64,000 bases of DNA from Aphelenchoides besseyi (Eukaryota; Nematoda; Chromadorea; Rhabditida; Aphelenchoididae). The position numbers were made by a program, and so were the translations under genes. The stretch's first letter is position 1; each line of letters begins with the position of its first letter. Under the pieces are notes generated by a model. The model was not told where the DNA came from and ran no database searches. It worked only from the letters and a program-made list of their open reading frames with translations. The stretch lies in assembly GCA_024699855.1 (NCBI GenBank), contig JAMPIQ010000003.1, positions 744,001 to 808,000 on the forward strand, in the 5' to 3' direction. Shown piece after piece: positions 4,001 through 62,819 of the stretch.

Positions 4001-6132
4001 TCCACCGATGAAGAAGTCGACATCTTCGACCGTACGAAAATGTTTTTTAAGCAGCGGAATCACACGTTTTGGATCTGCGAAATCGTCCCAAAGTGCTTCG
4101 AACGAATCGACAGCACTTCCGCCGCAATGTTCACGCCAAACAACATAGGACGGAAGTCCGTGATCTCGGCCGGTTTGCAACAGCATGGCGGCCAAATCCA
4201 ATCCCATACTCGAAGTGCCTTTGAATAAGCGACCACGAACATCGGCCGACATGTGAAGACCGAATGATGGTGGTGAGTCGCGAATGAGGAATCTGTTAAT
4301 TTAAATGAACTAACAGTTCTCACAGAACATACCGTAGAATTCCGTCAATATCCTCGCCGAACAAAAACAGTTTCGGTTTGTTGATATAATCGCCTAACGG
4401 TCGTTCCATTGTTTTATAACCGGCCGAATGAAATTGAGCAATTTTGTCGCCGAGCATTGTGTAGAAGAACTAAGCGCATTTTACTTTCGTCTTTTGTAGA
4501 AAACTCACTTGACCAACTGCTGCCGCATAGCCGTTTATGACTGATGGATTGACATTCAATCTGTAGATCTTGTCGGAATTTAAAGATTGATCGTGACTTT
4601 GAATATGACGGTACCAACGTTCACGGCCAATGAGAAGCGGTAGAAACTCGTTGTAAGTGATGTGTTGGATTTGTGCAATGACAACTCTCCGAGCCTCTTG
4701 ATACAATTGTTCGTCTGACCATCTGCGATTCAGATCCTGAAGTTGAAAGTGAGAACAATAACTCGTAGGATGTTTTCACCTTCAAAGTCTGTGCCACTCG
4801 ATTATGTTGACGAATCCACAGAGTGTGTAGGGAGACGAGAGTTGGCAGAAAGTTTGTGTGTTCGGAGCCGCTCAAGAAACACGACATTCCGTCTGGGCAT
4901 TTGGGTCCAATAAACGAAGGAGAATCAACGGTCATGAGCATTGGTTTCGGATATGCGGTATCCGATGAGACCTTCATTTTGCCTGAAGAACAATTGGTTT
5001 CTGTAAAATCGACAAGCTTACCGTCTTGAAACGTTCGCAACGAAACAGCTCGATCTGCGGTACTACCGTAGATGTTACTCGCGTCCAAGAAACTGGTCGC
5101 TTGATTTGACTGCTCTCTTGGTCCTAATGAGCAGTCGGAACGTGCAGCAATCAAAGAACGCGGATAATCGAGACAACTGACAAAACCGCCGTAGAATGGA
5201 TCGTGCTCATCGACGGTTATTGGACGACATTCCGGATGATCGGCTTCGCAACAAGGAAGTGGAACGTGTTTACCATCTTAAGAAACCAATGAATATAACT
5301 GATTGAAGCGCTTACTTTCGATTAGTTGCATTGAGCCGATATGAACCATATCAGTGAAAATGAACATGGTCCAGTGAACAAACAAAGTGGTCAGCGGTTG
5401 AGTTGTTGATTGAGAGTCTTCGAAGACTGCCGAATTATCGAAGAACACGTTCGACAAAAGACGTGGATTAGGTAATGGATAATCATTGATTATTGAGGCC
5501 CGGAAATCAGAAATCTCTAAACGTCAAGACGTCAAGAGCTTGAAGGCAGCAAGTTTACCGTCTAAATAGTCGGGAGCAATTTCACGTTTGAACGCCGCAA
5601 AAGCAGCACCCCAAGTCGGCGATTGAACGTTATTGCAACTTCCATCATACGATCGGTAGTTTGTTAAGCTGCACGGCGGCAACGATTTGCCACAGATTCC
5701 CGACTTCGAGAAGTCAGTTTTTTTAATTGTCGATAAACTTTGTTTCCTTCTAAAATTATAATTGATAGTTGAATTTGACTAGTGGATTACTGTTTCAAGT
5801 TTTCGGTCGTACGTAAAAGCACGTACGCTGCGAATGCCTTTTGCTTTCCGCGTTCCGATGAAAACGTGTGCGATAGCCACGCGTTTCGTGGATATGGCAT
5901 ATGAGTGGAAAACTCTACGAAACCTATTAGTTTGAGAGGGGTTTGTTGACTCACCGTATTTCGAGAATAATTCCGGTTCTGTGTGATTGTACAAGTGACT
6001 GGCTTCATTGAGTGCTCGTTGAAAAGCCTCTGAAAGTCATGTCAGAGCTTAAATTCTTTGCTTGAACTCACCATCAACTTCATCGCTTTGGATTGAAATG
6101 AATAAAAGAAAGAAGACGAGGATCGCAAACAT
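1021..6132 (-). CDS. Secreted tandem-domain animal haem peroxidase; first domain catalytically degenerate
   Basis: The start at 6132 opens a signal peptide ([10 protein letters not shown]). Two animal haem-peroxidase domains follow in many small exons: domain 1 about 5760-3800, domain 2 about 3530-1021. Both carry the family landmarks: PC...YRS.DG.CNN near the start, Q.NQ.T..LDAS.IYGS, a LHTLW or MHNIW helix, and RDHG. Domain 2 keeps the distal His (LDHEVTHSP, near 2810), the distal Arg (AGDERNS, near 2300) and the proximal His ([10 protein letters not shown], near 1960), so it should bind haem. Domain 1 lacks all three: FIFTDMVH replaces the DHD region, SGSEHTNF has no Arg, and GQFFYTML replaces FRYGHTL. 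A helical linker joins the domains. Secreted peroxidases of this family oxidise Tyr or halide; in nematodes several cross-link extracellular matrix. The protein ends [10 protein letters not shown], as the family does. Confidence 0.9.
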
Positions 6133-19595: not shown

Positions 19596-20038
19596 ACTCG
19601 AGATCTGCAATAAAATGAAAGAATTTCAATACTCCCTACAAAATGCAATTATTAAAAGTGTAAATAGAACTTCTGATCGACTTGACAAAGACCTTCAACT
19701 TCACACAATCATTAGCGAAAATTGTCCAATCAAACCACAATTCGCACGTGAGAAACGTTTTTAATGCCAATGGTGTGACCGTACATTTTACTAGAATACA
19801 AACCCTGCTTTAAATCCAAAAAATACCAATTTTTCATCGGCAATTGTTCTAATTCTTTATTGCAATTCAGTTTTCTCGTGAATTGGAAGGTCGAAAATGT
19901 TTACCTTTCGAACAGATTGAAGCATTAACAACATTTTTACTCAAGTTCTACTACAGTATCTTCCTCAGACACAAATACGATCTTTCAAAACACATCGACT
20001 CTCAAATTCCAATTGTCAGGAGCAAAAAAAGAAGGACT
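19596..20038. other. Intergenic
   Basis: Upstream region of the receptor and downstream flank of tRNA-Thr. A run of T on the tRNA strand just past its 3' end (20019-20032) would serve as Pol III terminator. No gene is seen. Confidence 0.4.
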
Positions 20039-20109
20039 GCCTCATAACGGAATCGAACCGTTGACCTTCTGTTTACTAGACAGACGCTCTGCCCCTGAGC
20101 CAATGAGGC
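20039..20109 (-). tRNA. tRNA-Thr (anticodon AGT)
   Basis: The reverse complement folds as a standard 71-nt cloverleaf. A 7-bp acceptor stem pairs GCCTCAT with ATGAGGC, the D arm is GCTC/GAGC, the anticodon stem is TCTGT/ACAGA with loop CTAGTAA (anticodon AGT), and the T arm is AACGG/CCGTT with loop TTCGATT. No intron is present and CCA is not encoded, as expected. A T-rich terminator follows. Confidence 0.95.
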
Positions 20110-21342: not shown

Positions 21343-21998
21343 AACAGAAAATCGCAAGTCGATTCGCGATTTTAAGTGACATTTATGTAACCGATAGAAT
21401 TCTTTAATACCTGAAACTTTGTACTTCCCGATACAAAAACTTTTCTGATGAATGAACTACACTTTATTAACTGTAAATACATGACGTTCAAATTCTTTTA
21501 ACACACACCTACGAATATCTAAGTTGGTTGCTTTGATCGGTTAATGACACAACTGTTGCTCTTTATATGCGAGTTTTATCGTAGTTAGCCTCTGGCGATC
21601 ACAGAATAGTATCTTTAAAGTGATGTTTATAAACAAAGAAGTTTGAGATTTGTAACTCTACGTAACAAGAGATCAGGACGAAATTTGAAGGGAGAGCGTA
21701 TTTCCATGGAAGTCGAGACTTTTCACGTGGTATTCTAAGCGACCAATCTAAGATATTAGTGGAAAGAAGCCCAACTCCTTTTCACGAGTGTATTCGGTTC
21801 CAGGTTCTATTCCAAAACAGTTTCTGTTCACCATAGAGTTGACGCAACAGACGAGTCGACACAGCGATTGGTAGTCGTTTTTGTTGTTCGCCGTCTGATC
21901 GCGTGCAGACAATAAACAAACTCACTGGTTTTGGCGCGTTTATTCATGACTTTTATTGACGTTCATTTTTAGTTAACTTCTTCGCTTCACCTCTCAAA
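21343..21998. other. Intergenic, divergent promoter interval
   Basis: This lies between the reverse-strand receptor and the forward-strand HTH gene. No open frame of interest. TTTTTAGTTAAC near 21967 could be an acceptor for a leader exon. Confidence 0.4.
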
Positions 21999-22772
21999 AT
22001 GGACGAAAAACCTCCGACAAAACGTGTCTACAAAGCGACGGATCCGAAGACTCGTGCGTGTTTGTTCTTCGAATACAAACGTGGAGTGTCGGCCGCCGAT
22101 GCAACGGCTCACATTCAACAAGTTTTTGGTGTCGATTCGATTGGATTGGAATGTGCACGAAAATGGTATCAGAAGTGGCGATCTGGAAACGAGAACTTCG
22201 ATGAGACCCGAAGTGCTGGTGCAACTGATGCAGCGAATGATTCGAGTGCCGGCACTTCGACGGCTGAAGTCAAACCGAAGAAGCCACGAGCTCCACGAAA
22301 GAAAAAGTCGGATGAGGTCGCGAATCAACAAGCGGAATCGAGTGGTCTAACTGCGCCGAAGCAAGCGAAATTGGAGTCGATTGTCGACTTTGCTACCGAA
22401 GCTTCGAAGCCAAAAACAAAGAAGCCGCGAAAGAAGAAATCCGATCAACAACCGGTGCCGATGGAAGCCGTTCAGCCACAAGTTCAATCAATGGTTCCAA
22501 TGCAAGTGCAGAAGTTCGAAGCGACGCCGTTCGTTCAACTGCAACCTCTGACTCCGATGCAACAGTTCACTCACGAACAACAACCGTTGATGGCTCCCGT
22601 TCAAGAGTCCGAACACACGATCAAAGTCGAGATGAGTGAGTGCGGTTACTTGCAGCCGAAATTGGAGGCGATGGCCGAAGCAAACAAAGAAAACTCACAA
22701 ACCGAAGACGAGTGGGCAGATGCCGATCAGGAGCCCACTGTCGAAGCTGTCAATGTCGAAGATGAATGGTGA
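21999..22772 (+). CDS. Transposase-type HTH (HTH_48-like) fused to basic and Gln/acidic tail; candidate domesticated DNA-binding protein
   Basis: A single intact exon of 257 codons. Residues about 17-65 match the N-terminal helix-turn-helix of mariner/Mos1-type transposases: a first helix ending F-F-E-Y-K-R-G-V-S-A, then A.AHIQQVFG.DSIG, then A-R-K-W-Y-Q-K-W-R-S-G-N, the family's W..KFR.G spot. No DDE catalytic domain follows. Instead there are two near-repeated basic blocks (K-K-P-R-A-P-R-K-K-K-S-D and K-K-P-R-K-K-K-S-D), a Gln/Pro/Met-rich stretch, and an acidic C-terminus with two D/E-EW elements. No terminal inverted repeats flank it. AATAAA at about 22856 follows. A role as a DNA-binding transcription regulator is inference; it could also be a simple relic, but there is no frame damage. 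Confidence 0.75.
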   Translation: MDEKPPTKRVYKATDPKTRACLFFEYKRGVSAADATAHIQQVFGVDSIGLECARKWYQKWRSGNENFDETRSAGATDAANDSSAGTSTAEVKPKKPRAPRKKKSDEVANQQAESSGLTAPKQAKLESIVDFATEASKPKTKKPRKKKSDQQPVPMEAVQPQVQSMVPMQVQKFEATPFVQLQPLTPMQQFTHEQQPLMAPVQESEHTIKVEMSECGYLQPKLEAMAEANKENSQTEDEWADADQEPTVEAVNVEDEW

Positions 22773-27109: not shown

Positions 27110-30100
27110 TTAATAGGGTTTGCATTTGTCTTTTGGATTCATCGCAGAGCCAACCGGGCAGCTGAATGCTTTAGCAAACGCTTCTGTGTTGGCAAGCAGA
27201 ACATTTACTTGGTATTTTTCCGGAATTTCGCCTTGTTTAATCAAATATCGAAGGCCATTAACGTTGAGATTGGCACAATTTCTCTGAAACAATCAAAGTA
27301 AAAAAATCGAGAATGTGTGGAACATACCATGGCATACGAAATGAAGAAGTTCTGTTCGCCAGTAAGTGAGTAACCGAGAAGAGTAGGATCCGAGTTTCCA
27401 ACGTTCTTTTTGTATGCCTAAAGATTTCGCATTAATTATTGCAATCTTCTTGCACTACCTCATAAGCAAATTGAATACCAAGATATTCTTCCATCGTATC
27501 TTCGTTATTGCTAAGCTTTGTTCCGGGTAACTCTTCGAGTTCCGTTTTTTTGAAGGCATTCGTCATACATTGCAATGTCGCTTTGTATTGTTTAGTTGTT
27601 TCGGCACTCCACCAATCACGCGTTTTAAGTGTTGAGTCAATGGTTGCACCTTAAATTGAATGATCGTAACTCTCATTCAGCTATTGCCTACCAGTATTCA
27701 AGACCAACATAACCATTTTTCCAGTTAGATATTGTCCAGTCATTCCATAATTTAGAGCTCTAAAAGATGTCATTTTAGTTTTCATTTTTTATCTCCACTT
27801 ACTGGGTCTTAGTTTTTTGTTGATAGAATGGATCTTTGGCAATAGCAGACGGAATAACTGAACAAAAGATCGTCGAAATATAACTGATAGAACTTACATA
27901 GCTTATTCTTATTGAAATGAAACACGTAAGCGATTAAATTCTGCCGTTCTTCCCAGTCGTCGTTTGTGTCTTCCTCATTAACGGCCGCTCGGAAATCTTC
28001 GTTTCTGCGCAATCGTTGCAGCAATTCGACTAATTGAACAAAGTTCATTCGTTCATAATTCTAAACTCGTCCTATAAACGTTGTTTCATTAAGAAACTTA
28101 CTTTGACCAAGTCGATACGTTTGCGTTTCTTAATCGTAGGGTATATGAACTTTAGACCCTTGAACTTATCCACAGCTACTTTCTTATCATTTTCGGACAT
28201 CCAACTAACTTCAAACCACGTTTCGACGTACTGAGTACGTAGTTTTTCAACAAAATTTTTGAAGTACTTTTCTTCAGTTGCTGGCAGATACTTTTCAAGG
28301 AAAAGTTGATCAGATAAGTCGGCAAAGAATCGTAAACTCAGATCATAACAATAGGAATTTCGGTTGAAAGAACTTTTTTGGCCTCTTAGATCATCTTTGA
28401 AGCTCTAGAGATCCCAATTAATAAACATGATTGTTCTTCGAAACTTGCATTGACAATCTTGACATATCGGTAGTCCAAATACGGAGCCATTTGAACAATG
28501 TAGTTTAGAATAATGAAGTTAGCAACAACTTCTGGGTCATTTTTTTATCATTTTAATAACCACATCGTAAATCTCTTCGACCGTCTTTGCATTTTTGACT
28601 CGTATAGTTCGATGAGTTTGAAGGAAATTCTGATAAAGCTGATCGTCGCTTCCCGACTTGATGTATTCATTAACGTTGGTCTGAAATATATTTTGAACGA
28701 ATCATCATAACAAACTTACGGACAGGTTATCCATGTCAACATCTTCGTACACCGCATTTTTGTTCTTCATTACGACTTTAATCAATTCTCCTTGGAAAGC
28801 AATGATCTTTTCCAAATCCTTCGTCATGTCTTCAGTGGATCGTGTTGCTTTCGCATCTTTAGCGAACAACGTAACCAACTCTTGTAAGAACTTTCGATAA
28901 ATCTCCAACTTTTCCTTTTTATTAAAATCATCAGCTGACATTCCGAACGGCAAATTGGAAGCTGACAGGTGAACCTGAACACTCGAATTGCAACTTCTAA
29001 TACAAAAAGAACTCACTTTAACAACTTCATTCTGCAATTCTTCGTTTTCAGTTGTAACATCCAAAAAGGTTTGAATACCAAATGCCGAACTGAACCATCT
29101 GACGTCTGATAGTCCTAAAAACTTCTTAGCGTCCCATTCAACATCACGGATCTTTCCCATCAAAGCCCAACCGTTTCGACGCTGAAATCATAGAATTAAA
29201 CTGAATACGACAATTAATGTACATACAAGAAGCACATCGACCAACGTTTCCACACCGTCGTTTCTCAAACTACTTTCATCGACGCAAAGATCATAAAAAC
29301 GTTTGAGTTCGTTTTCTTCTTCTGATTTTGGATTCAAAGATTTGAGAATCTCTAAAAAGTTTAAATCATAAAAACAACGATCGTGAATGCTTACTCTCCA
29401 TTTCATCGTGATTCTTATCGTTTGCATCCGTGATAAAGGTACGCGAGTTCCAGCGTTGGGGTATCGGATGCTCTTGAATCCAACGACCACACGAGTATTG
29501 ATAAAAATCATCACATGGATTAGTGGAAAGATCAATAGAATGTCGAAATGGTTCGTACGCAGGTTTAACATCCTCCGGCTTCGTGTTTCCGCCGTTTGTT
29601 TTGGATCCCGATTTTGTATCAGTTGAAGGATTAGAAGTTTGCTGACCGCCTTTGCTTGGCTGTGAACCTTGAGTATTATCCGCTCCAGTGTTTTTATCGT
29701 TTGCAGAAGGCTTCGGTTGTTTGTCCGCATCTTCGTTAGGAACGGAAGGTCGATTCTTCGGGTTATCATCTTTTGGTTGAGTCCCGGTTGATTGGTTCTT
29801 AGAGTTGTCTTTATTCGTTGATCCAGTCGTTTGATCTCCGCGTTTACCCGAATTGTCAGTTGGATTTTTTGAACTGCTATCCTTAGGTTGATTTCCGGTC
29901 GGTTGATTATTTGAAGTGTCACCGCTTTTTGCTGGACTAGAAGGCTTGTTTTTTGACTCATCTCCGGAATTCGATTCTGACTGATCTTTCGAGTTGCTTC
30001 CGTTTGTTGGATCATTTGAATTGCCGTCTTTTTGTTGATTCTTAGAATTGTCGTTGTTCTTCGATCCCGTTGATTGGTCTTCGGTTTTGTCAGATGAATC

Positions 30101-32083
30101 TTTTGAATTGCTATCCTTAGGTGGGTTTTCTGCCGGTTGATTTTTTGAGTTATCATCGTTCATTGATGAACCGGGAGATGGATTCTTCGAGTTGCCGCTA
30201 TTATTGTCAGAACTAGAAAACTGCTCGTCTTTCTTCGGTTGCGATCCAGTTTGTTGGTCTTTTGAGTTGCTGTCATTTGGTTTCGATACAGTTGGCTGAT
30301 CTTTGTCACCGGTTTCGTCCGGTCCAGTTGTTTGATCATTTGAATTTCCCTTGTTCTTGTTTGAGTCGGAGGATTGAGCTTTGTCGCCGTTCTTCTGCGG
30401 TTCACTCGGTTGATTCTTCGAGTTACCGTCGTTCTTTGGATTGGAAGATTGATTGTCGTCTTGTGAGTTGCTTCCATTTGTTTGATCTTTCCAACTGTCA
30501 TCTTTTGGTTGCTTTCCAATTGGTTGATTATTTGAGGTGCTATCCTTAGGTTGCGTTCCAGTTGACGGCTTTTTAGAGTTGTCATCTTTTGAATTAGAAG
30601 GTTGATTGTTGTCTTTTGAGTTGCTTCCATTTGCTTGGTCTTTCGAGCTGTTGTGTCTTGGTTGTGTTTCCACTTGTTGCTCTTTGTTTTCAGTCTTATC
30701 TGGGCTCGATGGTTGGCTGTTCTTTGATTTATTTTGCTGTCCATTAGAGCTGCCGTCTGCTGGCTGCGGTGCTGTCGGTTGGTTCTTCGAATTTTCACCG
30801 TTTTTATCTGCGCTCAATGGCTTATTATCTTTCGAACTGTCGCTGTTCTTTGGCCCGGTCGATTGATCTCCGGTTTTGTCAGCGCTGGATGATTGATCCT
30901 TTGGTTGAGTTTCAGTCGGAGAACTCTTTGAACTACCATTGTCTTTTGTCGAACCAGAAGACTGGTCTATGCTACCATTTTTGTTCGGACTTGACGGATG
31001 ATTATTGTCTTTTGAATTCTCATCTTCCTTTGGTCCAGTCGATTGATTCTCTGAGCGTCCACCACTTTTGTTTGAGCTGGCAGGTTGATTGTTATTTCCA
31101 CCACTATTCTGTGAGTTTGAATTCTCTTCATTGTTGCGATCACTAGGTTTCGAATTGCCGCTCTTCTTGGTATCGGTACTTGGCTTCGAGTTTTTAAGCG
31201 TTCTTGTATCTTTAGTCTTTCCATCATTCGGTTTGGCTTCACTTCTTGAATTTGAGTCGTTCTTGGCATCGTCACTTCTTCCGACTACGTTGTCATTTTT
31301 GGTTTCCGGTTTGTTGATTGCTTCACTTGTCGGAGTGTCTACTGACGCTTTTGATGGCTTATTGACATTCTTTCCTAATTGCATGTTATTTGAATCAAAG
31401 TTATTGTCATCAATTGGATTGTTTTTTAAGTGCCCAGGTTGTGAGTTGTTCTTGTCGTTTTTCGCATTTGTCGTCGGCGTTTTTGGAGTGGTGTTTTGTG
31501 GTGGAGTAAGATGAGGTTTACGTGGAGGCTTGTGAATGGGTTTATGGGTTTTTCTTGGAGCACGTTTACCATAAAGTCCACAAGTTCGACGACAGAATTT
31601 GTTGAGTCGAGCTGAACTGCAGATTTCTCGAGATATCCACGGCTTACAGCTAAACAAGAGATCTGAGAAGTTGTTTCTGCTGAACTTACTATTGATGATC
31701 TGCGGAACTGGTCGATCGATAAGCAGTCGGTTTGGTGCGATGATTAGGCTTTCTTGGTCGATGACGAGCGGTTATCTTCGGTCCGCGAGAACGAGCTTTA
31801 TGACGTCGAGATGAGTTGTGTTTGCGATGTCGTTTTCGTTGATGAACCGCCGGAACTGAGCAGATACCACAAGTGACTGAGAGTTTGAGGTTTGATCCCA
31901 GTTGAAAGATTAGTTCTTACCTGGACAATTGATGCGTATTGAATGTCCGATTTTCGGATGAAAACAATACCGAGAACCATGACCACAGAACGCGACATGA
32001 TCTTGACATTTTTTCGCACTAATCGGTATTAGTGCGTCAACAGGGAATATGGTGATTATTAGGAAGATAGGCCACAGATGCAT
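27110..32083 (-). CDS. Secreted ShKT / giant low-complexity / M13-peptidase-like protein lacking the zinc motif
   Basis: The start at 32083 gives a signal peptide (M-H-L-W-P-I-F-L-I-I-T-I-F-P-V). Exon 1 and the start of exon 2 (32083-31921, 31876 on) encode a ShKT-type Cys module (K-K-C-Q-D ... C-G ... C-F ... N-C-P ... T-C-G-I-C). A very basic linker and a second ShKT-like module (CKPW...C...FCRRTCG, about 31645-31570) follow. One exon then encodes more than 600 residues rich in Ser/Asn/Lys/Asp/Gln/Pro (about 31500-29600). The rest is an M13 (neprilysin-type) fold: S-T-N-P-C-D-D-F-Y-Q-Y-S-C-G-R-W start, IPSA...LNYGM, and C-terminal AFSCPVGSAMNP..KC. Near 27720-27755, where G-H-E-x-x-H belongs, the sequence reads L-T-G-K-M-V-M-L; the later E-x-x-x-D reads E-D-T-M-E. 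It is thus probably not a peptidase. Confidence 0.85.
29600..31500 (-). repeat. Low-complexity Ser/Asn/Lys/Asp/Gln-rich coding repeat inside the M13-like gene
   Basis: The encoded protein is built from irregular ~15-25-residue units containing variants of N-S-K-D, K-N-Q-P, S-T-G-x-Q-P-K-D and S-S-D-K. Unit boundaries drift, so it is a degenerate tandem array rather than a clean satellite. It stays open for some 1,900 nt in one frame, and long shadow frames appear on both strands because stop codons are rare in such sequence. Confidence 0.85.
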
Positions 32084-32935: not shown

Positions 32936-33537
32936 TGGTGTCTTTTCCGTTTGCGCATATTGGTCACTGGAACTCTAATAACCTTGTTTTCAGCTACTTG
33001 GATTTGTTCCATCAATCCACCGACCACTCGAATGTCGTTCCATTTTCTCAGTTCAATGAAATGATCGGATCTCATCACAATCAATCAATCGGCCAGGAAA
33101 ATGAAATCGCCATCAAAGCGGAACCCGAGGATCCGCAACCAACCACTCCGATGCCCAACGAATATCTACAATCGAATCAAATGCACATGATTCATCAACC
33201 ACCGACTTCCCACTATCAATTGGGAATTGACAAGTAAGTTCTTAATGTTAGTGCCAATCTATCCTCTTTCAGTCATTTCCTGTTGAACGATCAGGCCCGA
33301 CAGCGTCTGGAGCGCAAAAGAGCGCGAAATCGATTGGCAGCAGAGAAGTGTCGTCAACGGAAACTTCATCGAATCGCGACGTTGGAAGAGCAGTTGGCGG
33401 CTGAAAGAGAACGTACCACACAGTTGATTAAGCAGCGCGATCAATTAGCCGGAGATCTGCATCATCTTCGTGTTCTAATCGATCAGCACCGAGTTTGTGG
33501 CGACGAGCTGGAGCGGCTGACGCGTTCAAATCGTTGA
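32927..33537 (+). CDS. Jun-type bZIP transcription factor
   Basis: Three coding exons: an 11-nt micro-exon with the ATG (32927-32937), 32994-33232, and about 33274-33537. A leader exon ends at 32888 (GGTAACTTT donor) and would be non-coding, since its frame hits TGA in the micro-exon. The N-terminal half is His/Gln/Pro-rich with an IKAEPED element. The C-terminal half is a bZIP: basic region R-K-R-A-R-N-R-L-A-A-E-K-C-R-Q-R-K (the N..AA..CR..K signature), then a Leu heptad zipper and an HRVCGDEL end like the Jun HVNSGCQL tail. Jun proteins dimerise with Fos/ATF partners and bind TGAGTCA. At about 185 residues it is shorter than vertebrate Jun, and I see no clear JNK-docking delta region. AATAAA at about 33557 follows. 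Confidence 0.8.
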
Positions 33538-34750: not shown

Positions 34751-34898
34751 GGTTGGCATCCGTTTAATTGCTTTGAATATCGTTATGTTTGTTTGTTAAA
34801 ATAAATTCATTTAAATTCAAATTGTTTTCATACTCATGATTTCTTGTGAATTATGCACTTCTATTGCCTGGTTGATTAAAAACCGCAAAAAAAGAACT

Positions 34899-34969
34899 GC
34901 CTCGTAACGGAATCGAACCGTTGACCTTCTGTTTACTAGACAGACGCTCTGCCCCTGAGCCAACGAGGC
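34899..34969 (-). tRNA. tRNA-Thr (anticodon AGT)
   Basis: A second 71-nt cloverleaf, identical to the one at 20 kb except for one acceptor-stem pair: GCCTCGT pairs with ACGAGGC (G-C instead of A-T at position 6-67). Anticodon loop CTAGTAA. A T7 run just 3' on the tRNA strand acts as Pol III terminator. Confidence 0.95.
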
Positions 34970-35992: not shown

Positions 35993-37485
35993 TACAGTAC
36001 TGGACAAAAGTTTGGAAGACACCTGTATCTCGCGAATGGCTGAAGGGAACAGGTCGGTTTTTGTACATTAGAGTTTTTATTCGAAGAGCATTTGAATGAA
36101 CATAAAAAAGTTGAAAAAATTTAAGCAATAAAAAAAATTAACAAAAATTGAAAATGGGGGTGGACAAAAGTTTGGAAGACACTTTGTTTTGTTGAGATAT
36201 CTGCGCGCCTCGCTTTTCGCCACGTCCACAAGACGTTTATTCATACAGGAGAACAGGGTCTCAATCGTCTGAGCCTTAAACTTCGGGGCGGCGCAATGGA
36301 TTGCGGTTAGAGGTTCGGGCTTTGTGCGAAATTGGCCATTCTTGTATATTTCGTCTTCCATCAGCTTCCAAACGTTCTCCATCGGATTCAGATCTGGGCC
36401 ACGCGATGGTCAATCGCTCGTAGCTACTTCCTGGTCGAGTAAGAAGTCAGTGCTGACCTTCGCCGTGTGAATTAGTGTCAGGTCTTGTTGCCACGCCCAG
36501 GACCGGCGTCTCATTTGCTTTCGGATCCACAGTAAGAACTTCAAATTGAGATCCGAAAAGTAGTCGACTGCCTTGTAGTGATTGTTGCAGACCTATAACG
36601 GATAAAATTGCCATCAAATGTTGAAGAGATAGACGAAGAATTTACGTTGATCAGCAGTTTTGCGGTTGAACAGATGGCACCGAGGATCATGATTGATCCA
36701 CCGCCCATTTGTCGCTTGTATCGCTTCAAATGAACGTTTTCGGTTCTATACGAACCTGCACTGTCCGGCCCTTCCAGACAAAAGCGCTTTTCGTCGCTGA
36801 AAACCCATGTTGTAAAGTCGGTCCCAGCGATCAAGTGACGTCGTGCAAAGTTGAGACGGTTTAAGCGGCGTGTGCCCGTGAGAGGAAGCCGCTTCTTAAC
36901 AAACTCGTAGAAGACTTCGTCGCAATTCAGCCATTGGCGAATCGTTCGTCGATCGACCTCCATTTCCAAGTTATCCTGGATTGAACGCGAGCTAAGGCGG
37001 CTACCGCCTTGAAGTTCGTTGACTACATGGCGTTTAATACGACGACGAAAGCGCGAATTCACTTTCTTTGGACGACCGAGAGTCTTGCCTGTCTTTCTGC
37101 TCGAATTTTTGAGTACGCGCTCAACACTCGACTTCCAAACTTCAAATTGCTTTGCCGTTCCTCTAATACTTCGTAAAATCGCGTACTGCTCCTTAATTTC
37201 TTTTTTCTTGTCCGAAAGAATATTAAACGACAAAACTAAAAAGTTGAAGAAACCACGCTATCATTACTAAGCACACAAAAACCCCATAAACCGAGTGTCT
37301 TCCAACCTTTTGTCCACCCGATTTTCGAGTTAGGCCAACTTTTCTAGAGTTGGACGTCACGGCCAGCTTTTTTATTGTTCATTCAAATACTCTTTGTCTA
37401 AGACGTTCAATGTACATAAACCGACCTGTTCCCTTCAGCCATTCGCGAGATACAGGTGTCTTCCAAACTTTTGTCCAGTACTGTA
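35993..37485 (-). mobile_element. Tc1-like transposon, copy 1 (reverse orientation)
   Basis: TA dinucleotides (35993-35994, 37484-37485) flank ~75-bp inverted repeats beginning CAGTACTGGACAAAAGTTTG. Each end also has an internal direct copy of the core TGGACAAAAGTTTGGAAGAC about 160 bp inward (36161 on the left; 37297 on the right with one mismatch), the IR/DR arrangement known from Sleeping Beauty-type Tc1 elements. It sits beside the 614-bp element and a short CAGGGTGTCCCA remnant (35955 on). Confidence 0.93.
36077..37233 (-). pseudogene. Tc1-family transposase, copy 1, disrupted
   Basis: The N-terminal part has paired HTH-like regions (G-K-T-L-G-R-P-K-K GRPK motif), then the first catalytic Asp in FSDEKRFCLEG. 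A short intron (about 36593-36645 in this orientation) leads to the second Asp (W-Q-Q-D-L-T-L-I-H-T) and the final Glu in N-P-M-E-N-V-W: a DDE transposase. It is broken by a TGA at 36410-36412, where the family has a conserved Trp just before PSRGPDLNP, and by a one-base deletion near the C-terminus (about 36222). The beginning lacks a clear ATG. Confidence 0.85.
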
Positions 37486-53137: not shown

Positions 53138-56100
53138 TTAATCGGCGTGCAGTTCGACCTTCGCCAATGGGCACAACCCGAGGACCCAGCTCGTTGTTGT
53201 AAAATTCGGCGTCATTCCAACCAATTCGATGTTTTTACCACGAACTACGAGGACGAGCATTTGGACTAATCGATGATAACGTTTAAGCTGATAGTCGGTC
53301 ATTTCGGCGAACGTCGCTCGGCTGATCACATTGGCGAACTTGTTCAAAAACAAGTACGATGGCTTGGCTTCGCTTTGATTGGCGTAAGAAGTTAAGATTT
53401 CGAAGTCCTGAAGATCCTGTTTAGTCCATTCCTCGTGGATTGGTTTCATTCTATTCGTGTATTGGACGGGTGTTTCTTTCGGCAATGTCGGTGATATTAA
53501 CAGGTCCCGATGGATCTCATAGGATCGAAATGTGAGTCGAATTGTGTCGACTGAGAGAACTTCGGTTTATCTTGCAAATAATTTGCAAACTCGGAAACCT
53601 AAAGCAACAAAGAACGTTTAAAAAATTTCGCTTCAGATTACTGTCTTGATTTTTCGAACAACGCGTAAAAGTGTTTCAGACTGCAGACCATCGATGGAAG
53701 AACGCGCGTGAAGTCCCTCAGCTTCCACTTTCAAATCGGAGTAAACTCATTCGTTAACGCGTCGCACAATCTGAAAGCATTGTGCTGTAAATTGTTTGAC
53801 AATGTTGGGTAGTGGAATCTCACAACGTCTTGGCCTTCCGTTTTGACGCGGTAGGCCGTTGTTTTTTGTTTTGGACTCTCGTGGCATGAATATTGTTGTT
53901 GGTATCTTAATTCTAATAAACACTTTGTAACTAAAGGACTCAACAAATTGGCGCAGTCGACATCGAAAAGAACCAACTAAAAGGTGAAAGTTTTGAAGAA
54001 TTGTTGTTGCTCTTAAAATTTCAGCAATGGAATCGGTAATAAAGACTTGCAAGATCCAAATATCACGCTCTTCAAATACGATCCGAGAAGCAATCAAGCA
54101 AATCGATGCCTTGGAGAAGGAGAGCCTTACCGCCGACGGCCGAAAGAAACTCATCAAATTGGAAGCTATTTTGCGAAACTCTATCGCGAATATTACCAAA
54201 TACGAGGAAAAGTGGTCGCTCGCGGGAGGAGATGATATGGACGACTACACAGCAAACACGAACGACTACATCCAAGCGGTACTGGAAGGACAGGTTGCGA
54301 TGGACGACGTTCAAGCGATGTTGGAACCGAAAAGAACGACCACAACAACAGCAACGACTGGTGGAATCACGTCGTCGGTCACATCGATGTTAGCTGAAGC
54401 ACGAAATCTCCTGCCGACGTTCAAATATGTCAAAGAAGGCGAGCAGGATTTCGACGACTACCTGCTACGTTTCAAAGCAGTAGTCGAGACAACAACGCTT
54501 ACGACGAGTCAACAACGAACGTTGCTATTGTCGGTTCTTGGAGACTCCGAACTCACTCGTTTGCGAGACAGTTTGATGCCCAACGCACCGGAACTTTGCA
54601 CACTCGACATCCTTACTGCGAAACTCAAGGTTCTGTTCTCTAATCGGAAGACTCTATTTCAGAAGAGACTCGACTTCCTATCCGCACGACATGCAGCTGG
54701 TGAGTCAATTGATGAACTTGCAGATCGCGTTAACAAGTTGTTCGCTCAAGCAAATTGGGGAGCAATGTCGAGCGAGCAAATCAAGAGCTTGATCTTGGTC
54801 AACTCGTTGAAAGCCGCTGGAGACGAACCGTTCACGAGTGCAGTTCTGCGCGAAATTGAGAGCAAAGAAGGAGACACTACGTTGGATGGATTGCGAGTGA
54901 TCTGCCGAGGAGTCGAGAATCACGCTCGAAATTGCCAACGAATGAAAATGGAGGACCCTACCTCGTTCATCAAACAAGTCAACGATTCCGAAGAGCAGAT
55001 TGCCAAGTTCGAGTACAAGAAGACGACGAAGAAGAGACAACCAAAAAAGAACTCACCGACACCCGAAGAGCCACCGTCCACTGGAAAAGAGTGCGGCAAA
55101 TGCGGTCGAGTCCACGAGAAGAAGAACTGTCCGGCATTCAAGTCCACATGCAACCAATGTGGCAAAACGGGACATTGGGCAGCAAAATGCCGAACGAAGG
55201 CGCTCAACACCATCAACATCAGCCAAATGCTGGTCAACGTGCCGAAGACACAACCCGTCAAACGAACCGTCTTGATCAATGGAATCGAAATGGAGTTCGA
55301 GTTGGATTCGGGAGCACGAGTGTGTGCAATTGGGCTGCGACAGTTAAAAGAACTGGGCAACCCGAAGTTGCAAGCGTCCAAAGTGAACGTTCGGGGAGCC
55401 GATGGTAAGCCAATGCAAGTTCAAGGATCATTTCAGGCAACGATTGATTGGCGAGGAGTCAAAGGACAATCGGAGGTCTTGGTCTTGAACATGGAGAATC
55501 AAGCGCTACTTTCGTTGGACATCATCACAGCGCTGGGAATGTGTGAATTTCACGATGAGCCGAAATTGAACCAAATGGTCGAAACCGCTAAGTTGCCATT
55601 CATGAATCAGAAGTTCTCGAAATTGTTTGCAGAAGGACTGGGACGATGCAAAACGTTGACAGCGAAACTACACATCGATCCGAACTGCAAACCAACTCAT
55701 CTGTCTCGTCGTCCGTTGGCATTGGCAATTGAACCACTGGTCGAAAAGGAGATTGAACGATTGGTCGAAATGAAGATCCTGAAGCAGGTGGACCGATCAA
55801 TATGGGCAACTCCGATTGTGGTCGCGAAGAAACCACAAGGCAAAATTCGGATTTGCGCTGATTACAGCACCGGATTGAACCGAGCTCTGGAAACGGACAA
55901 GTACCCGCTACCAAATATCGAGGAAGTTTTTGCCAAATTAGCAGGCTGTAACACGTTTTCTCAGTTAGACCTTTCAGATGCTTACCATCAAGTCGAGTTG
56001 GACGAGGAATCGCGTTCGTTAACGACGATCACAACTCATCGCGGTCTGTTCGAGTATCAACGTTTGAACTTCGGACTGAAAACAGCACCGGCGATTTTCC

Positions 56101-59100
56101 AACGGATCATGGACCAAATCTTGGCGGGACTACCCGGAGTGATCGTGTATTTGGACGACATTTTGGTCTGCGGTCGAACAGCTCAGGAACACGACGAACG
56201 TTTGAATCAAGTACTCGAGAAGTTGCAACTCACAGGTTTTCGACTTCAACTTCCGAAATGCAAATTCAACGCAAAAACCGTCACGTATCTGGGAGCAATC
56301 GTCGACGAGCACGGAATTCGACCGGATCCAGCGAAGTTGGAAGCAATCCGAAAACCGGAGACGGAAGGTGAAGTTCGAGCATTTTTAGGCTTCGTCAATT
56401 ACTATGGAAAGTTCATCAAGAATCTGCACATCCACAAACAGCCGCTGGAGGAACTCACGCACCAAAGAACGGAGTTCAAATGGACGAAGAGACACGATCA
56501 AGCGTTCGAGAAGCTCAAGGAAGTTTTGTTAACAGATTTCTCGCTAGCTCACTACAACCCAAACAAAACTCTGATTGTAGCTGCGGATGCGAGTCCAACC
56601 GGAATGGGAGGCACCTTAATGCAACGAGACGAAAATGGAACGGTGGAAACAGTCTTCCACATGAGCAAATCGTTCACTGACGCCGAGCGAAAGTACTCGC
56701 AAATTGAACGGGAAGCTCTGAGCTTAGTTCTAGCTGTCGAACGCTTCCGCAAGTTTGTGTATGGTAGACAATTTTACTTGCAGACCGACCATCGTCCGTT
56801 ACTCGCACTGTTCCGAACCGACCAGACAAAAGGATTAGACGCGCGTACGTCAAGTCGACTCTCCAGATGGGCATTGCGACTGTTGGGATTCGATTTCAAA
56901 ATCGAATATGTCAACACCAAGGAATTTGGGTACGTCGATGCACTGTCGCGATTGATCGACGAAAAACGAGAACACGCGGACCCACAACTCGAGGAAGTCA
57001 TCGGAAACTTGCGGGTCGAAGAATTGGAACTGTCAACCCTCGGAGAAGAGATTCAGGAATCAATGGGAGTCGGATCGAATAGTGAGAAGTTTAAAAAGTC
57101 TATTTCCAGCGACCCCGCGTTCCACAAACTGCTCAATCGAGTGCAGAATGAATGGACAGACGACGACAAGAACGACGAGCTCATTGGCAAATTCTACTCG
57201 CTGCGCAACGAACTCTACGCCGTCGATGGACTCATCATGTTCCGAGATCGTTTTGTGGTGCCACCGAATCTACGAACAGAAATTTTGGAGAAGATCCACG
57301 ATGGTCATCCCGGAATCCGACATTCGAAACAACGAGCTCGTGCCACAGTCTTTTGGCCTGGAATCGACAACGACATCGAACAAATGGTCCGAAACTGTTC
57401 CGCTTGTGCTGAGGTGGCCGTCGCGCCTCGAAAAGCTCCGTTGTCACCGTGGCCTGAAACGCAAGAACCATGGGACCGAATCCACATCGACTTCGCAGGA
57501 CCGATCGATGGAAACTTCATTTTGGTGGTTGTCGATGCGAGCACCAACTGGATTTGGACTCAGAAGATGAAAACAATCACCGCTCAACGAACGACCGAAG
57601 TTCTGGAGAAACTTTTCTACCTCACGGGACCACCAAAAACGCTGATCTCTGATAATGGAACTCAATTTGCTTCTGATTACTTTCATAAGTTTTGTAAGTC
57701 TTTGGGAATTGTCCACCTCTTTTCTCCGCCTTACCACCCCCAATCAAACGGGAGGGCCGAACGAGCTGTTGCTCGGGTGAAAACCGCAATCTTAAAGGAA
57801 GGAAGAGGTCTTGGGGCTCTCGGACTTATCACGTATCAGCTCAACGTCAACCCGAGTGATACAAATGATGGCACCAGTGCGGCAAACGCATTCTACAAAC
57901 GAAAGGTTCGTACGCCTCTGGAGATGCTGCTCCCGAACCGCCAAACCACAAAGTCAACAGCGAAATCAGCGAAACAAACCGCCAACTTCAATCGCCACCA
58001 CGGAGCCCGATTGCGCAACTTCACGATTGGAAGCTCTGTTCTCGTCGACCTCAACCCTAAACGACGAGTTACCGGTCAAATCCTACGCTTCAATGGAACC
58101 CGATCAATCACAATTCAAACTCAAAATGGACCCGTCACGCGTCACATGAACCACGTCCATCTACGACCGAAGGAGCCGGAGAGTTCTGAGTCTCGACCGA
58201 CTGATAAGTTGGGTTGATCTTGGGAATGGTTAGTGGCCCGTGGTAATCTTCTGTTAGCTTGTTATCGTTATTTTTGTTTCAACTGTTATTGTTAAGTTTG
58301 TTTATCTGTTATCTCAATCATGGGACTTTCAATGTAAAGAAAGGGAGGGATGTTGGGTAGTGGAATCTCACAACGTCTTGGCCTTCCGTTTTGACGCGGT
58401 AGGCCGTTGTTTTTTGTTTTGGACTCTCGTGGCATGAATATTGTTGTTGGTATCTTAATTCTAATAAACACTTTGTAACTAAAGGACTCAACAGACAACA
58501 ATCCTTACCGCAAGTACATTTGTTTTGTTTTCTTGTCCATCGCTTTGCTCATACTGTTGTCAAACGGGATTTCAACTCGTGTGTTGAAATCATCGGTCTG
58601 GCCATACGAGTCGTAATGATCAGCAAGTCCCAAGTATGTGGTAAACATCTTTTCGTCCTTTTCCTCTTCAGAAGTTTCTTCACGTCGATTAGAATTCGCG
58701 TCGTTTTCTTGCTCAGCCTTGAGAGCTGCCTTCGCTTCCGCAACTTGAAGTTGGTATCGTTGACGATGATGTTCAGAATCACGCTCACGCATATACTGTG
58801 CGCGCAGTCTTTCCATCGTTTCCAACGAAATAATTGGTTTTCCGCGCATTTTCGAGAGGACCGTGTCGTGCTAAAATTCTAAACGGTAAAACAAATTTTC
58901 AAATTCTTAAACGTACCGAAGCGTAAGGCGGAACGCCATAGACGATCGAATACAATTCTTTTCGGTTAAAACCGGGGACTCCGGCGTAGCCTCGACGTTG
59001 AATTACAACTTTCTTCAAACTGTCTTTCGTCCATTTTGGTCGATCTCGGTATTCCGGCAAATTCGCCCATCGCTTGCACAACCTGCAAATTCGAGATAAA

Positions 59101-61325: not shown

Positions 61326-62819
61326 TACAGTATTGGACAAAAGTTTGGAAGACACCTGTATCTCGCGAATGGCTGAAGGAAACAGGTCGGTTTATGTACA
61401 TTGAACGTCTTAGACAAAGAGTATTTGAATGAACAATAAAAAAGCTGGCCGTGACGTCCAACTCTGGAAAAGTTGGCCCAACTCGAAAATCGGGTGGACA
61501 AAAGGTTGGAAGACACTCGGTTTATGGGGTTTTTGTGTGCTTAGTAATGATAGCGTGGTTTCTTCAACTTTTTAATTTTGTCGTTTAATATTCTTTCAGA
61601 CAAGAAAAAAGAAATTAAGGAGCAGTACGCGATTTTACGAAGTATTAGAGGAACGGCGAAGCAATGTGAAGTTTGGAAGTCGAGTGTTGAGCGCGTACTC
61701 AAAAATTCGAGCAGAAAGACAGGCAAGACTCTCGGTCGTCCAAAGAAAGTGAATTCGCGCTTTCGTCGTCGTATTAAACGCCATGTAGTCAACGAACTTC
61801 AAGGCAGTAGCCGCCTTACCTCGCGTTCAATCCAGGATAACTTGGAAATGGAGGTCGATAGACGAACGATTCGCCAATGGCTGAATTGCGACGAAGTCTT
61901 CTACGAGTTTGTTAAGAAGCGGCTTCCTCTCACGGGCACACGCCGCTTAAACCGTCTCAACTTTGCACGACGTCACTTGATCGCTGGGACCGACTTTACA
62001 ACATGGGTTTTCAGCGACGAAAAGCGCTTTTGTCTGGAAGGGCCGGACAGTGCAGGTTCGTATGGAACCGAAAACGTTCATTTGAAGCGATACAAGCGAC
62101 AAATGGGCGGTGGATCAATCATGATCCTCGGTGCCATCTGTTCAACCGCAAAACTGCTGATCAACGTAAATTCTTCGTCTATCTCTTCAACATTTGATGG
62201 CAATTTTATCCGTTATAGGTCTGCAACAATCACTACAAGGCAGTCGACTACTTTTCGGATCTCAATTTGAAGTTCTTACTGTGGATCCGAAAGCAAATGA
62301 GACGCCGGTCCTGGGCGTGGCAACAAGACCTGACACTAATTCACACGGCGAAGGCCAGCACTGACTTCTTACTCGACCAGGAAGTAGCTACGAGCGATTG
62401 ACCATCGCGTGGCCCAGATCTGAATCCGATGGAGAACGTTTGGAAGCTGATGGAAGACGAAATATACAAGAATGGCCAATTTCGCACAAAGCCCGAACCT
62501 CTAACCGCAATCCATTGCGCCGCCCCGAAGTTTAAGGCTCAGACGATTGAGACCCTGTTCTCCTGTATGAATAAACGTCTTGTGGACGTGGTCGAAAAGC
62601 GAGGCGCGCAGATATCTCAACAAAACAAAGTGTCTTCCAAACTTTTGTCCACCCCCATTTTCAATTTTTGTTAATTTTTTTTATTGCTTAAATTTTTTCA
62701 ACTTTTTTATGTTCATTCAAATGCTCTTCGAATAAAAACTCTAATGTACAAAAACCGACCTGTTCCCTTCAGCCATTCGCGAGATACAGGTGTCTTCCAA
62801 ACTTTTGTCCAGTACTGTA
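61326..62819 (+). mobile_element. Tc1-like transposon, copy 2 (forward orientation)
   Basis: Same element as at 36-37.5 kb in opposite orientation, 1,494 bp, with TA at both ends (61326-61327, 62818-62819). Its left end has one change (CAGTATTGG). The same long inverted repeats and inner direct repeats are present. Confidence 0.95.
61578..62673 (+). pseudogene. Tc1-family transposase, copy 2, with in-frame TGA
   Basis: Near-identical to copy 1. The N-terminal GRPK region, F-S-D-E-K (first Asp), an intron at about 62166-62218, W-Q-Q-D (second Asp) and N-P-M-E-N-V-W (Glu) are all present. The TGA at 62399-62401 stands where a conserved Trp is expected, exactly as in copy 1. Unlike copy 1, the C-terminal frame is unbroken (V-E-K-R-G-A-Q-I-S-Q). 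No clear ATG at the beginning. Confidence 0.85.

What the first reader, a model, noticed from the sequence alone, without database searches (positions are those of the whole stretch)
27110..32083. Secreted ShKT + giant Ser/Asn/Lys repeat + M13 fold without zinc site
The combination of two Cys-rich toxin-like modules, a basic linker, more than 600 low-complexity residues and an M13 domain with L-T-G-K-M-V-M-L in place of HExxH is unusual. It looks like a matrix or mucin-like protein with a protein-binding M13 fold rather than an enzyme.
Basis: partly seen in the sequence, partly recalled or inferred. Interest (0 to 1): 0.75.

Follow-up and report, generated by a model that had tools for sequence, protein, structure and literature searches.

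The report
Secreted ShKT–pseudo-neprilysin with giant linker
In a plant-parasitic roundworm, a gene for a probably secreted protein joins two small cysteine-rich modules, an unusually long charged and flexible linker, and a neprilysin-type enzyme fold that has lost its zinc site; it belongs to a small family in which working and dead versions share the same front end.

Summary
On the minus strand, 27110-32083, of Aphelenchoides besseyi lies a 14-exon gene: signal-like leader, ShKT1, basic linker, degenerate ShKT2, a 674-residue linker and a whole M13 domain. All 10 catalytic/substrate positions checked are changed (HExxH is GKMVM), yet 8 of 8 structural cysteines remain. Introns of 39-45 nt leave no room for a missed HExxH exon.

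Exon 7 has a frame break near 28540 in this assembly; a database entry starts a separate 359-residue protein just after it. I left it unmended and searched the pieces apart. And the gene has kin: of 23 M13 loci found, 7 have detectable N-terminal ShKT; all 5 clearly dead M13s are ShKT-fused, and 2 ShKT-fused ones keep HExxH. The tree favours two losses of catalysis; one is not rejected (p 0.067).

'Mucin-like' is weak: the linker is a well-mixed polyampholyte (89 K+R, 90 D+E, 25.5% Ser+Thr) grown by in-frame duplication. Best reading: a secreted, tethered, non-enzymatic M13 scaffold or decoy. New variant of a known kind; expression, ligand and gene integrity untested.

The parts
27110..32083 (-). 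whole gene, 14 exons (E1 32083-31921, E2 31876-31690, E3 31649-29395, E4 29351-29227, E5 29181-29017, E6 28974-28720, E7 28680-28449, E8 28404-28102, E9 28060-27898, E10 27857-27803, E11 27759-27692, E12 27649-27459, E13 27417-27328, E14 27283-27110)
   Evidence: junction words and phases; 12 of its 13 introns sit at the same place (within one residue) and phase as the 12 introns of the C1:16.4M paralog
32009..32083 (-). hydrophobic leader (signal peptide judged by eye, no predictor run)
   Evidence: similar leader in P0001 and P0003
31860..32008 (-). ShKT1, six Cys, split by the E1/E2 intron
   Evidence: Pfam ShK residues 25-60
31716..31859 (-). basic linker
31580..31715 (-). ShKT2 across the E2/E3 intron (left end approximate): four Cys, lacking Cys1 and Cys6 of its paralogs; the intron inside it is shared in place and phase with 5 of the 6 paralogs compared (not L054)
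29582..31519 (-). low-complexity Ser/Asn/Lys/Asp/Pro/Thr/Gln/Gly linker, 646 residues; net charge about zero; dispersed in-frame duplications; a single match in the genome by DNA search
28540..29581 (-). first piece of M13_N, up to the frame break
   Evidence: Pfam PF05649 1.6e-29
28536..28550 (-). frame break in exon 7: run of A, then an in-frame UGA; the downstream M13 frame is another frame. No suitable intron found by eye
   Evidence: no intron at this place in C1:16.4M or L066
27110..28538 (-). rest of M13_N and the M13 domain; in databases a separate protein from an internal Met (P0007, 359 aa)
   Evidence: Pfam PF05649 1.7e-16 and PF01431 4.9e-29
27920..27931 (-). A-Y-V-F in the place of the NAFY substrate motif
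27708..27722 (-). G-K-M-V-M in the place of the HExxH zinc motif
27486..27503 (-). E-D-T-M-E-E in the place of GENIAD
27209..27232 (-). segment holding the columns of His711 (Glu) and Arg717 (Gln)

Best explanation
The gene encodes a secreted, non-enzymatic member of an Aphelenchoides ShKT-ShKT-linker-M13 family. Shown by sequence: the ShKT modules, the linker, the M13 homology and the loss of the catalytic positions. Inferred: the ShKT modules place the protein at an extracellular site (cuticle, gland secretion or a partner receptor) shared with its still-active ShKT-M13 paralogs; the 674-residue balanced-charge linker is a hydrated, disordered tether that lets the M13 part reach outward; the M13 shell is kept folded by its disulphides to bind a peptide or protein without cutting it, acting as a scaffold, decoy or protector of substrates of the active paralogs. 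The exon-7 break is taken to be an assembly error or a recent lesion in one copy rather than part of the mechanism; this is a judgement, not a result.
For: Domains. 10 of 10 active-site columns changed in the window gene, 8 of 8 Cys of an active Loa loa M13 kept. The C-terminal piece is 85.3% identical over 361 residues to its counterpart in another A. besseyi assembly, with no stop, about as conserved as the same part of the dead paralog P0001 against P0003 (81.4%). Relatives of the same build: C1:16.4M (its model is identical to P0001, 850 of 850), L066, L057, L061 dead; L054, L055 with HExxH. The ShKT2 intron is shared by the window gene and 5 of 6 paralogs compared. Dead M13s are ShKT-fused in 5 of 5, HExxH-bearing ones in 2 of 14 (loci are related, so this is only a guide). 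Foldseek: only M13 structures at E <= 0.001 for the P0001 and P0007 models. Precedent for secreted inactive M13 proteins proposed to sequester peptides: Drosophila Nepl15 (PMC7822871, passages; PMC8223033, passages).
Against: The Asn, His and Arg columns used for substrate in neprilysin are changed too, so classical peptide binding in the cleft is doubtful. ShKT2 lacks two Cys. No expression, localisation or ligand evidence. The frame is broken in this assembly and no full-length product came up in the database search (6 of 2379 candidates matched, best 45%); the C-terminal part is entered as its own protein in two assemblies. Clade support for the ShKT family is 89/86 and one single loss of catalysis is not rejected. 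Models have low to moderate confidence (mean pLDDT 59 and 72), with residues 1-185 of P0001 nearly all under 50.
Confidence: 0.5

Rival explanations
1. It is mainly a structural surface-coat or matrix glycoprotein: the long linker is O-glycosylated, the ShKT modules cross-link or anchor it, and the M13 fold is a passive remnant.
For: Toxocara TES-120 mucins combine Ser/Thr-rich cores with two to four ShKT domains (PMC3611597, passages). Linker 25.5% Ser+Thr with 16 N-x-S/T sites. Linker 674 residues against 17-70 in the paralogs.
Against: The linker is a balanced polyampholyte with charges better mixed than in 300 shuffles (0.914 against 1.385 +/- 0.128), not a Ser/Thr core; kept Cys and 85% conservation of the C-terminal piece argue that the M13 part is not a mere remnant.
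Confidence: 0.2
2. It is a decaying gene: the exon-7 frame break is real and fixed, and the domain losses reflect relaxed selection.
For: Frame break with in-frame stop; loss of Cys1 and Cys6 in ShKT2; no full-length product in the database search; the other assembly's entry P0008 starts at the equivalent internal Met.
Against: Only one break in 14 exons; 33 of 34 repeat spacings in the linker are multiples of three (recounted; families overlap); C-terminal piece conserved without stops between assemblies; 8 of 8 M13 Cys kept. Without nucleotide data from other isolates dN/dS was not run.
Confidence: 0.15
3. The break is functional: either two separate genes (a ShKT-linker-half-M13 protein and a C-terminal M13 protein), or programmed frameshifting at the A-run/UGA.
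For: Entries in two assemblies start at the same internal Met (P0007, P0008). The next frame is +1 at an A-run directly before UGA followed by C, the geometry of known +1 recoding sites (antizyme, Euplotes; recalled, from no call).
Against: The split cuts M13_N in its second half, and the C-terminal entry shows no leader. Annotation starts are weak evidence, and homopolymer errors can recur in similar assemblies. The models of paralogs C1:16.4M and L066 read through this place in frame.
Confidence: 0.07
4. The linker is the functional part: an extracellular hydrophilin-like protectant against drying, carried by ShKT and M13 as anchors.
For: GRAVY -2.10 and 7.3% Gly, which meet the recalled hydrophilin thresholds (Gly over 6%, hydrophilicity over 1). 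A. besseyi survives drying (recalled).
Against: Many low-complexity hydrophilic stretches would score so; the paralogs lack the long linker.
Confidence: 0.05

Closest known systems
Neprilysin-like (Nepl) inactive M13 proteins of Drosophila, e.g. Nepl15
   Same: secreted M13 proteins with catalytic motifs lost; lineage-specific expansion beside active paralogs (PMC8223033, PMC7822871, passages)
   Different: no ShKT modules or long linker in the passages read; here the ShKT-bearing family has its own active members
Toxocara canis TES-120 mucins (MUC-1 to MUC-5)
   Same: secreted, ShKT modules joined to Ser/Thr-rich low-complexity (PMC3611597, passages)
   Different: no M13 domain in the table rows read; Ser/Thr core rather than a balanced polyampholyte
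ShKT joined to astacin (M12), M14, haem peroxidase or tyrosinase in nematodes
   Same: ShKT joined to a secreted enzyme domain (PMC10857297 for Bursaphelenchus, PMC5763927 for Anisakis astacins; passages)
   Different: M13 not named among the ShKT partners in the passages read (the list ends 'and others'); here the partner domain is dead
A. besseyi P0001 and P0003 (named 'Phosphate-regulating neutral endopeptidase')
   Same: leader, two ShKT, linker, M13 without HExxH; the C1:16.4M gene (P0001) shares 12 introns
   Different: ShKT2 has six Cys; linker about 68 residues in P0001 against 674; frame unbroken

Membership tests
M13 family (homology and fold) | Pfam PF05649 and PF01431 over gathering score | tested here: met
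   103.9 and 61.1 bits against 32 (two pieces); 101.9 against 24.5
M13 family (homology and fold) | structural Cys of the family | tested here: met
   8 of 8 Cys of active P0004 aligned to Cys
M13 active peptidase | HExxH zinc/catalytic motif | tested here: not met
   GKMVM
M13 active peptidase | GENIAD motif with zinc Glu | tested here: not met
   EDTMEE: zinc Glu column Asp, Asn column Thr, Asp column Glu; some ambiguity in this stretch between the alignments
M13 active peptidase | NAF/YY substrate motif; His711 and Arg717 | tested here: not met
   Asn to Ala, His to Glu, Arg to Gln
M13 active peptidase | C-terminal CxxW | tested here: not met
   ends C-K-P-Y
Nepl-type inactive secreted M13 | M13 domain, motif loss, leader instead of transmembrane segment | tested here: inconclusive
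   domain and loss met; leader judged by eye only
ShKT (ShK) domain, first copy | Pfam PF01549 over gathering score, six Cys | tested here: met
   36.8 bits for the whole stretch against 20.9, residues 25-60 the best; six Cys
ShKT (ShK) domain, second copy | six Cys in three bridges | tested here: not met
   four Cys; the missing two are Cys1 and Cys6, a bridged pair in the ShKT pattern (passage of PMC10857297, partly cut, and recalled)
ShKT mucin (TES-120 type) | Ser/Thr-dominated, O-glycosylated core | tested here: inconclusive
   25.5% Ser+Thr, 27.7% charged; glycosylation not testable here
Hydrophilin | high Gly and hydrophilicity; response to drying | tested here: inconclusive
   linker composition meets recalled thresholds; response not testable here

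The most novel reading that the evidence does not exclude
Aphelenchoides has an enzyme/decoy toolkit: ShKT-ShKT front ends deliver active M13 peptidases and, arising twice independently, dead M13 twins to the same extracellular place, where the dead ones hold or shield the peptides that the active ones would cut; the window gene is the long-reach version, its linker stretched about tenfold against P0001 by in-frame duplication.
Probability: 0.2. Interest if true: 0.7.

Novelty: new variant of a known kind. Interest (0 to 1): 0.5.

Why it matters
Inactive M13 proteins are known in insects, but what they are kept for is mostly open. A family in which active and dead M13 domains share the same ShKT front end, with the loss of catalysis probably repeated, is a natural experiment on the use of a dead peptidase. 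It also shows that database names ('Phosphate-regulating neutral endopeptidase', 'Membrane metallo-endopeptidase-like') assign enzyme activity to proteins that lack the catalytic residues.

Tried and rejected
A missed exon with HExxH: rejected, no intron is longer than 45 nt and the HExxH column is in exon 11. An intron hiding the exon-7 break: none found by eye among donors and acceptors in the sequence (no script was run for this), and the two nearest paralogs have no intron there. A tandem array: not found; best periodicity, 14 residues, within shuffle range (0.152; shuffle maximum 0.157). The linker as a mobile or shared element: one match in the genome, itself (that search skips simple repeats and common words). 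ShKT-M13 fusions outside Aphelenchoides: a profile search returned only A. besseyi proteins (3 of 6,814 candidates at E <= 1e-10), but it also failed to return the Loa loa M13 that one search had found, so absence is not shown. Literature, open-licence PMC only: neprilysin+ShKT+nematode (1 paper), ShK domain/M13/metallopeptidase/nematode (60 papers, 15 listed), peptidase M13/ShK toxin/domain architecture/nematode (10 papers, all listed) and A. besseyi+neprilysin (1 paper): no ShKT-M13 fusion in the titles, abstract starts and passages seen. One dead clade instead of two: not rejected (AU p 0.0674). Automated gene models: the P0001-guided models misread the zinc region of L054 and L055, which the P0004-guided models read as HExxH; I used the latter for the tree and site table. 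L048, L056 and L065 were left out of the tree as too short; L052 (branch length 3.15) was in the tree but out of the counts, as were P0008 and L060 for the ShKT count. ShKT in the other loci was sought only with the P0001 N-terminus and the Pfam search (79 matches), so 'no ShKT' means not detected; L065 scored 59, just under my cut of 60, over scattered pieces. M13 loci are a lower bound, as the tool states.
Full report
WHERE IT IS. The window lies at C3:744001-808000 of a 47.39-Mb genome in 31 contigs. A database protein 99% identical to the C-terminal part of this gene (P0007, Aphelenchoides besseyi) sits on a contig of 9,972,226 bases, exactly the length of C3, so the source is A. besseyi, a plant-parasitic nematode.

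GENE MODEL. On the minus strand 14 exons run from 32083 to 27110 with 13 introns of 39-45 nt, 12 GT-AG and one GC-AG (junctions chosen by eye, phases checked). They encode a hydrophobic leader (signal peptide by eye; no predictor was run), ShKT1, a basic linker, ShKT2, the low-complexity linker and M13. ShKT2's second part, the linker and the start of M13_N share one 801-residue open frame; the chance of such a frame is about 10^-22 at window composition, 10^-19 at its own. Pfam: ShK 5.8e-9 with two stretches, M13_N 1.6e-29 and 1.7e-16, M13 4.9e-29. Twelve of the 13 introns match the 12 introns of the paralog at C1:16.4M in place (within one residue) and phase, including the one inside ShKT2. 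This supports one ancestral gene.

FRAME BREAK. Exon 7 does not read through: after a run of A an in-frame UGA begins at 28539, and the M13 frame goes on from 28538 in another frame. I found no intron that explains it, by eye, and the two nearest paralogs have none there. Databases hold the part after the break as a separate protein starting at an internal Met: P0007 (359 aa) and, from another A. besseyi assembly, P0008 (361 aa, 85% identical). A search with the M13_N piece found no protein of 603-1920 residues closer than 45% (6 matches among 2379 candidates), so no full-length product came up at that sensitivity.

ACTIVE SITE. On an alignment of 24 C-terminal M13 halves, the window gene is changed at all 10 positions examined (neprilysin numbering): N542 A, A543 Y, H583 G, E584 K, H587 M, E646 D, N647 T, D650 E, H711 E, R717 Q. 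The alignment of the E646 stretch differs slightly. The 8 Cys of an active Loa loa M13 are all kept. I grouped the exon matches by hand into 23 M13 loci, a lower bound: 14 have HExxH, 5 do not, and 4 (L048, L052, L056, L065) are too short or too poorly modelled to say.

FAMILY. ShKT was detected in front of 7 of the 23: the window, C1:16.4M (its model equals P0001 in 850 of 850 residues), L066, L057 and L061 (all dead), and L054 and L055 (HExxH; ShKT2 of L054 only partly modelled). L060, which groups with L054, has a leader and a His/Ser-rich stretch instead. In the tree the ten rows of this group, L060 and two proteins of other assemblies included, form one clade at 89/86, not strongly supported; the window clade of five is 100/100; L057 and L061 sit beside the active L055 (93/82). 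Parsimony gives two losses of the zinc site and one gain of ShKT, but a single dead clade is not rejected (AU p 0.0674). The two dead groups kept different residues: L057 and L061 keep His587 and Asp650; L066, in the window's group, keeps Ala543, Glu646 and Asn647. Dead M13s are ShKT-fused in 5 of 5, intact ones in 2 of 14 (Fisher p 0.0018; loci are related, so the p is only a guide).

WHAT IS SPECIAL IN THE WINDOW MEMBER. ShKT2 has four Cys; the two missing are Cys1 and Cys6, bridged partners in the ShKT pattern. The linker is 674 residues from the last ShKT2 Cys to the M13 start, against 17, 36, 33, 70 and 56 in L066, L055, L054, L057 and L061; for P0001 and P0003 that script counted from a Cys inside the linker (33 and 37), and from ShKT2 it is 68 in P0001. 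The 646-residue low-complexity part has 89 K+R and 90 D+E, charges better mixed than shuffles (0.914 against 1.385 +/- 0.128), 3.3% hydrophobic residues and no Cys. It contains dispersed direct repeats of up to 99 nt at 60-88% identity; 33 of 34 spacings are multiples of three, families overlapping (recounted): growth by in-frame duplication. Its DNA has one match in the genome, itself.

CONSERVATION. The C-terminal piece and P0008 are 85.3% identical over 361 residues; the same part of P0001 and P0003, from two assemblies, 81.4%. So the piece after the break is at least as conserved as an unbroken dead paralog. No nucleotide sequence of another isolate was at hand, so dN/dS was not run.

STRUCTURE. 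AlphaFold2 models of P0001 (850 aa; 6 sequences; mean pLDDT 59, residues 1-185 nearly all under 50) and P0007 (359 aa; 8 sequences; mean pLDDT 72) match neprilysin first in the PDB (E 9.4e-26 and 1.0e-11), and their 19 and 17 matches at E <= 0.001 are all M13 structures. The rmsd values are large (about 6-10), so this supports the fold class only.

MECHANISM. Catalysis is excluded by sequence as far as the motifs go. What remains is a probably secreted, disulphide-held M13 shell on a long hydrated tether behind ShKT modules. The most economical role is binding without cutting, as proposed for Drosophila Nepl15 (PMC7822871, passages), here at an address shared with active ShKT-M13 paralogs. Against it: the substrate-holding Asn, His and Arg are lost too. 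A coat or matrix role is the main rival (TES-120 mucins carry ShKT; PMC3611597, passages), but the linker is not Ser/Thr-dominated.

NOVELTY. Inactive M13 proteins are known: thirty sequences with altered catalytic or structural positions, all invertebrate but one (Bland et al., PMC2259306, section 10). ShKT joined to M12, M14, peroxidase or tyrosinase is known (PMC10857297, passages). ShKT joined to M13, in active and dead forms, I found in none of the papers seen in the searches listed under Tried and rejected. New variant of a known kind.

Noticed in passing
window 36544-37257 (-) and 61554-62267 (+): Two 238-residue open frames with nearly the same first 60 residues in opposite orientation about 25 kb apart; weak match to Tc3-type transposase HTH, below Pfam's cut-off.
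   Followed up: partly
window 53997-58214 (+): 1,406-residue open frame with reverse transcriptase, RNase H and integrase domains: an LTR-type retroelement.
   Followed up: partly
window 21960-22769 (+): 270-residue open frame with the Mos1-type HTH_48 domain.
   Followed up: partly
window 4624-5277 (-): Exon of an animal haem peroxidase (E 2.2e-36).
   Followed up: no
window 20038-20109 (-) and 34898-34969 (-): Two tRNA genes.
   Followed up: no
window 33238-33537 (+): Open frame with a basic, leucine-zipper-like stretch, just upstream of this gene on the other strand (by eye; not searched).
   Followed up: no
L060 (C2:3352500-3359800), upstream of its M13: An M13 with intact HExxH, grouped with the ShKT-M13 family, has a leader and a His/Ser/Ala-rich stretch in place of ShKT: possible loss or replacement of the modules.
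   Followed up: partly
P0001, P0003, P0007 (database entries): Names such as 'Phosphate-regulating neutral endopeptidase' for proteins without HExxH.
   Followed up: yes
P0007 against window exons 7 and 8: The database model drops two residues at the E7/E8 junction that P0008 and the paralogs keep, which fits my GC-AG intron better.
   Followed up: partly
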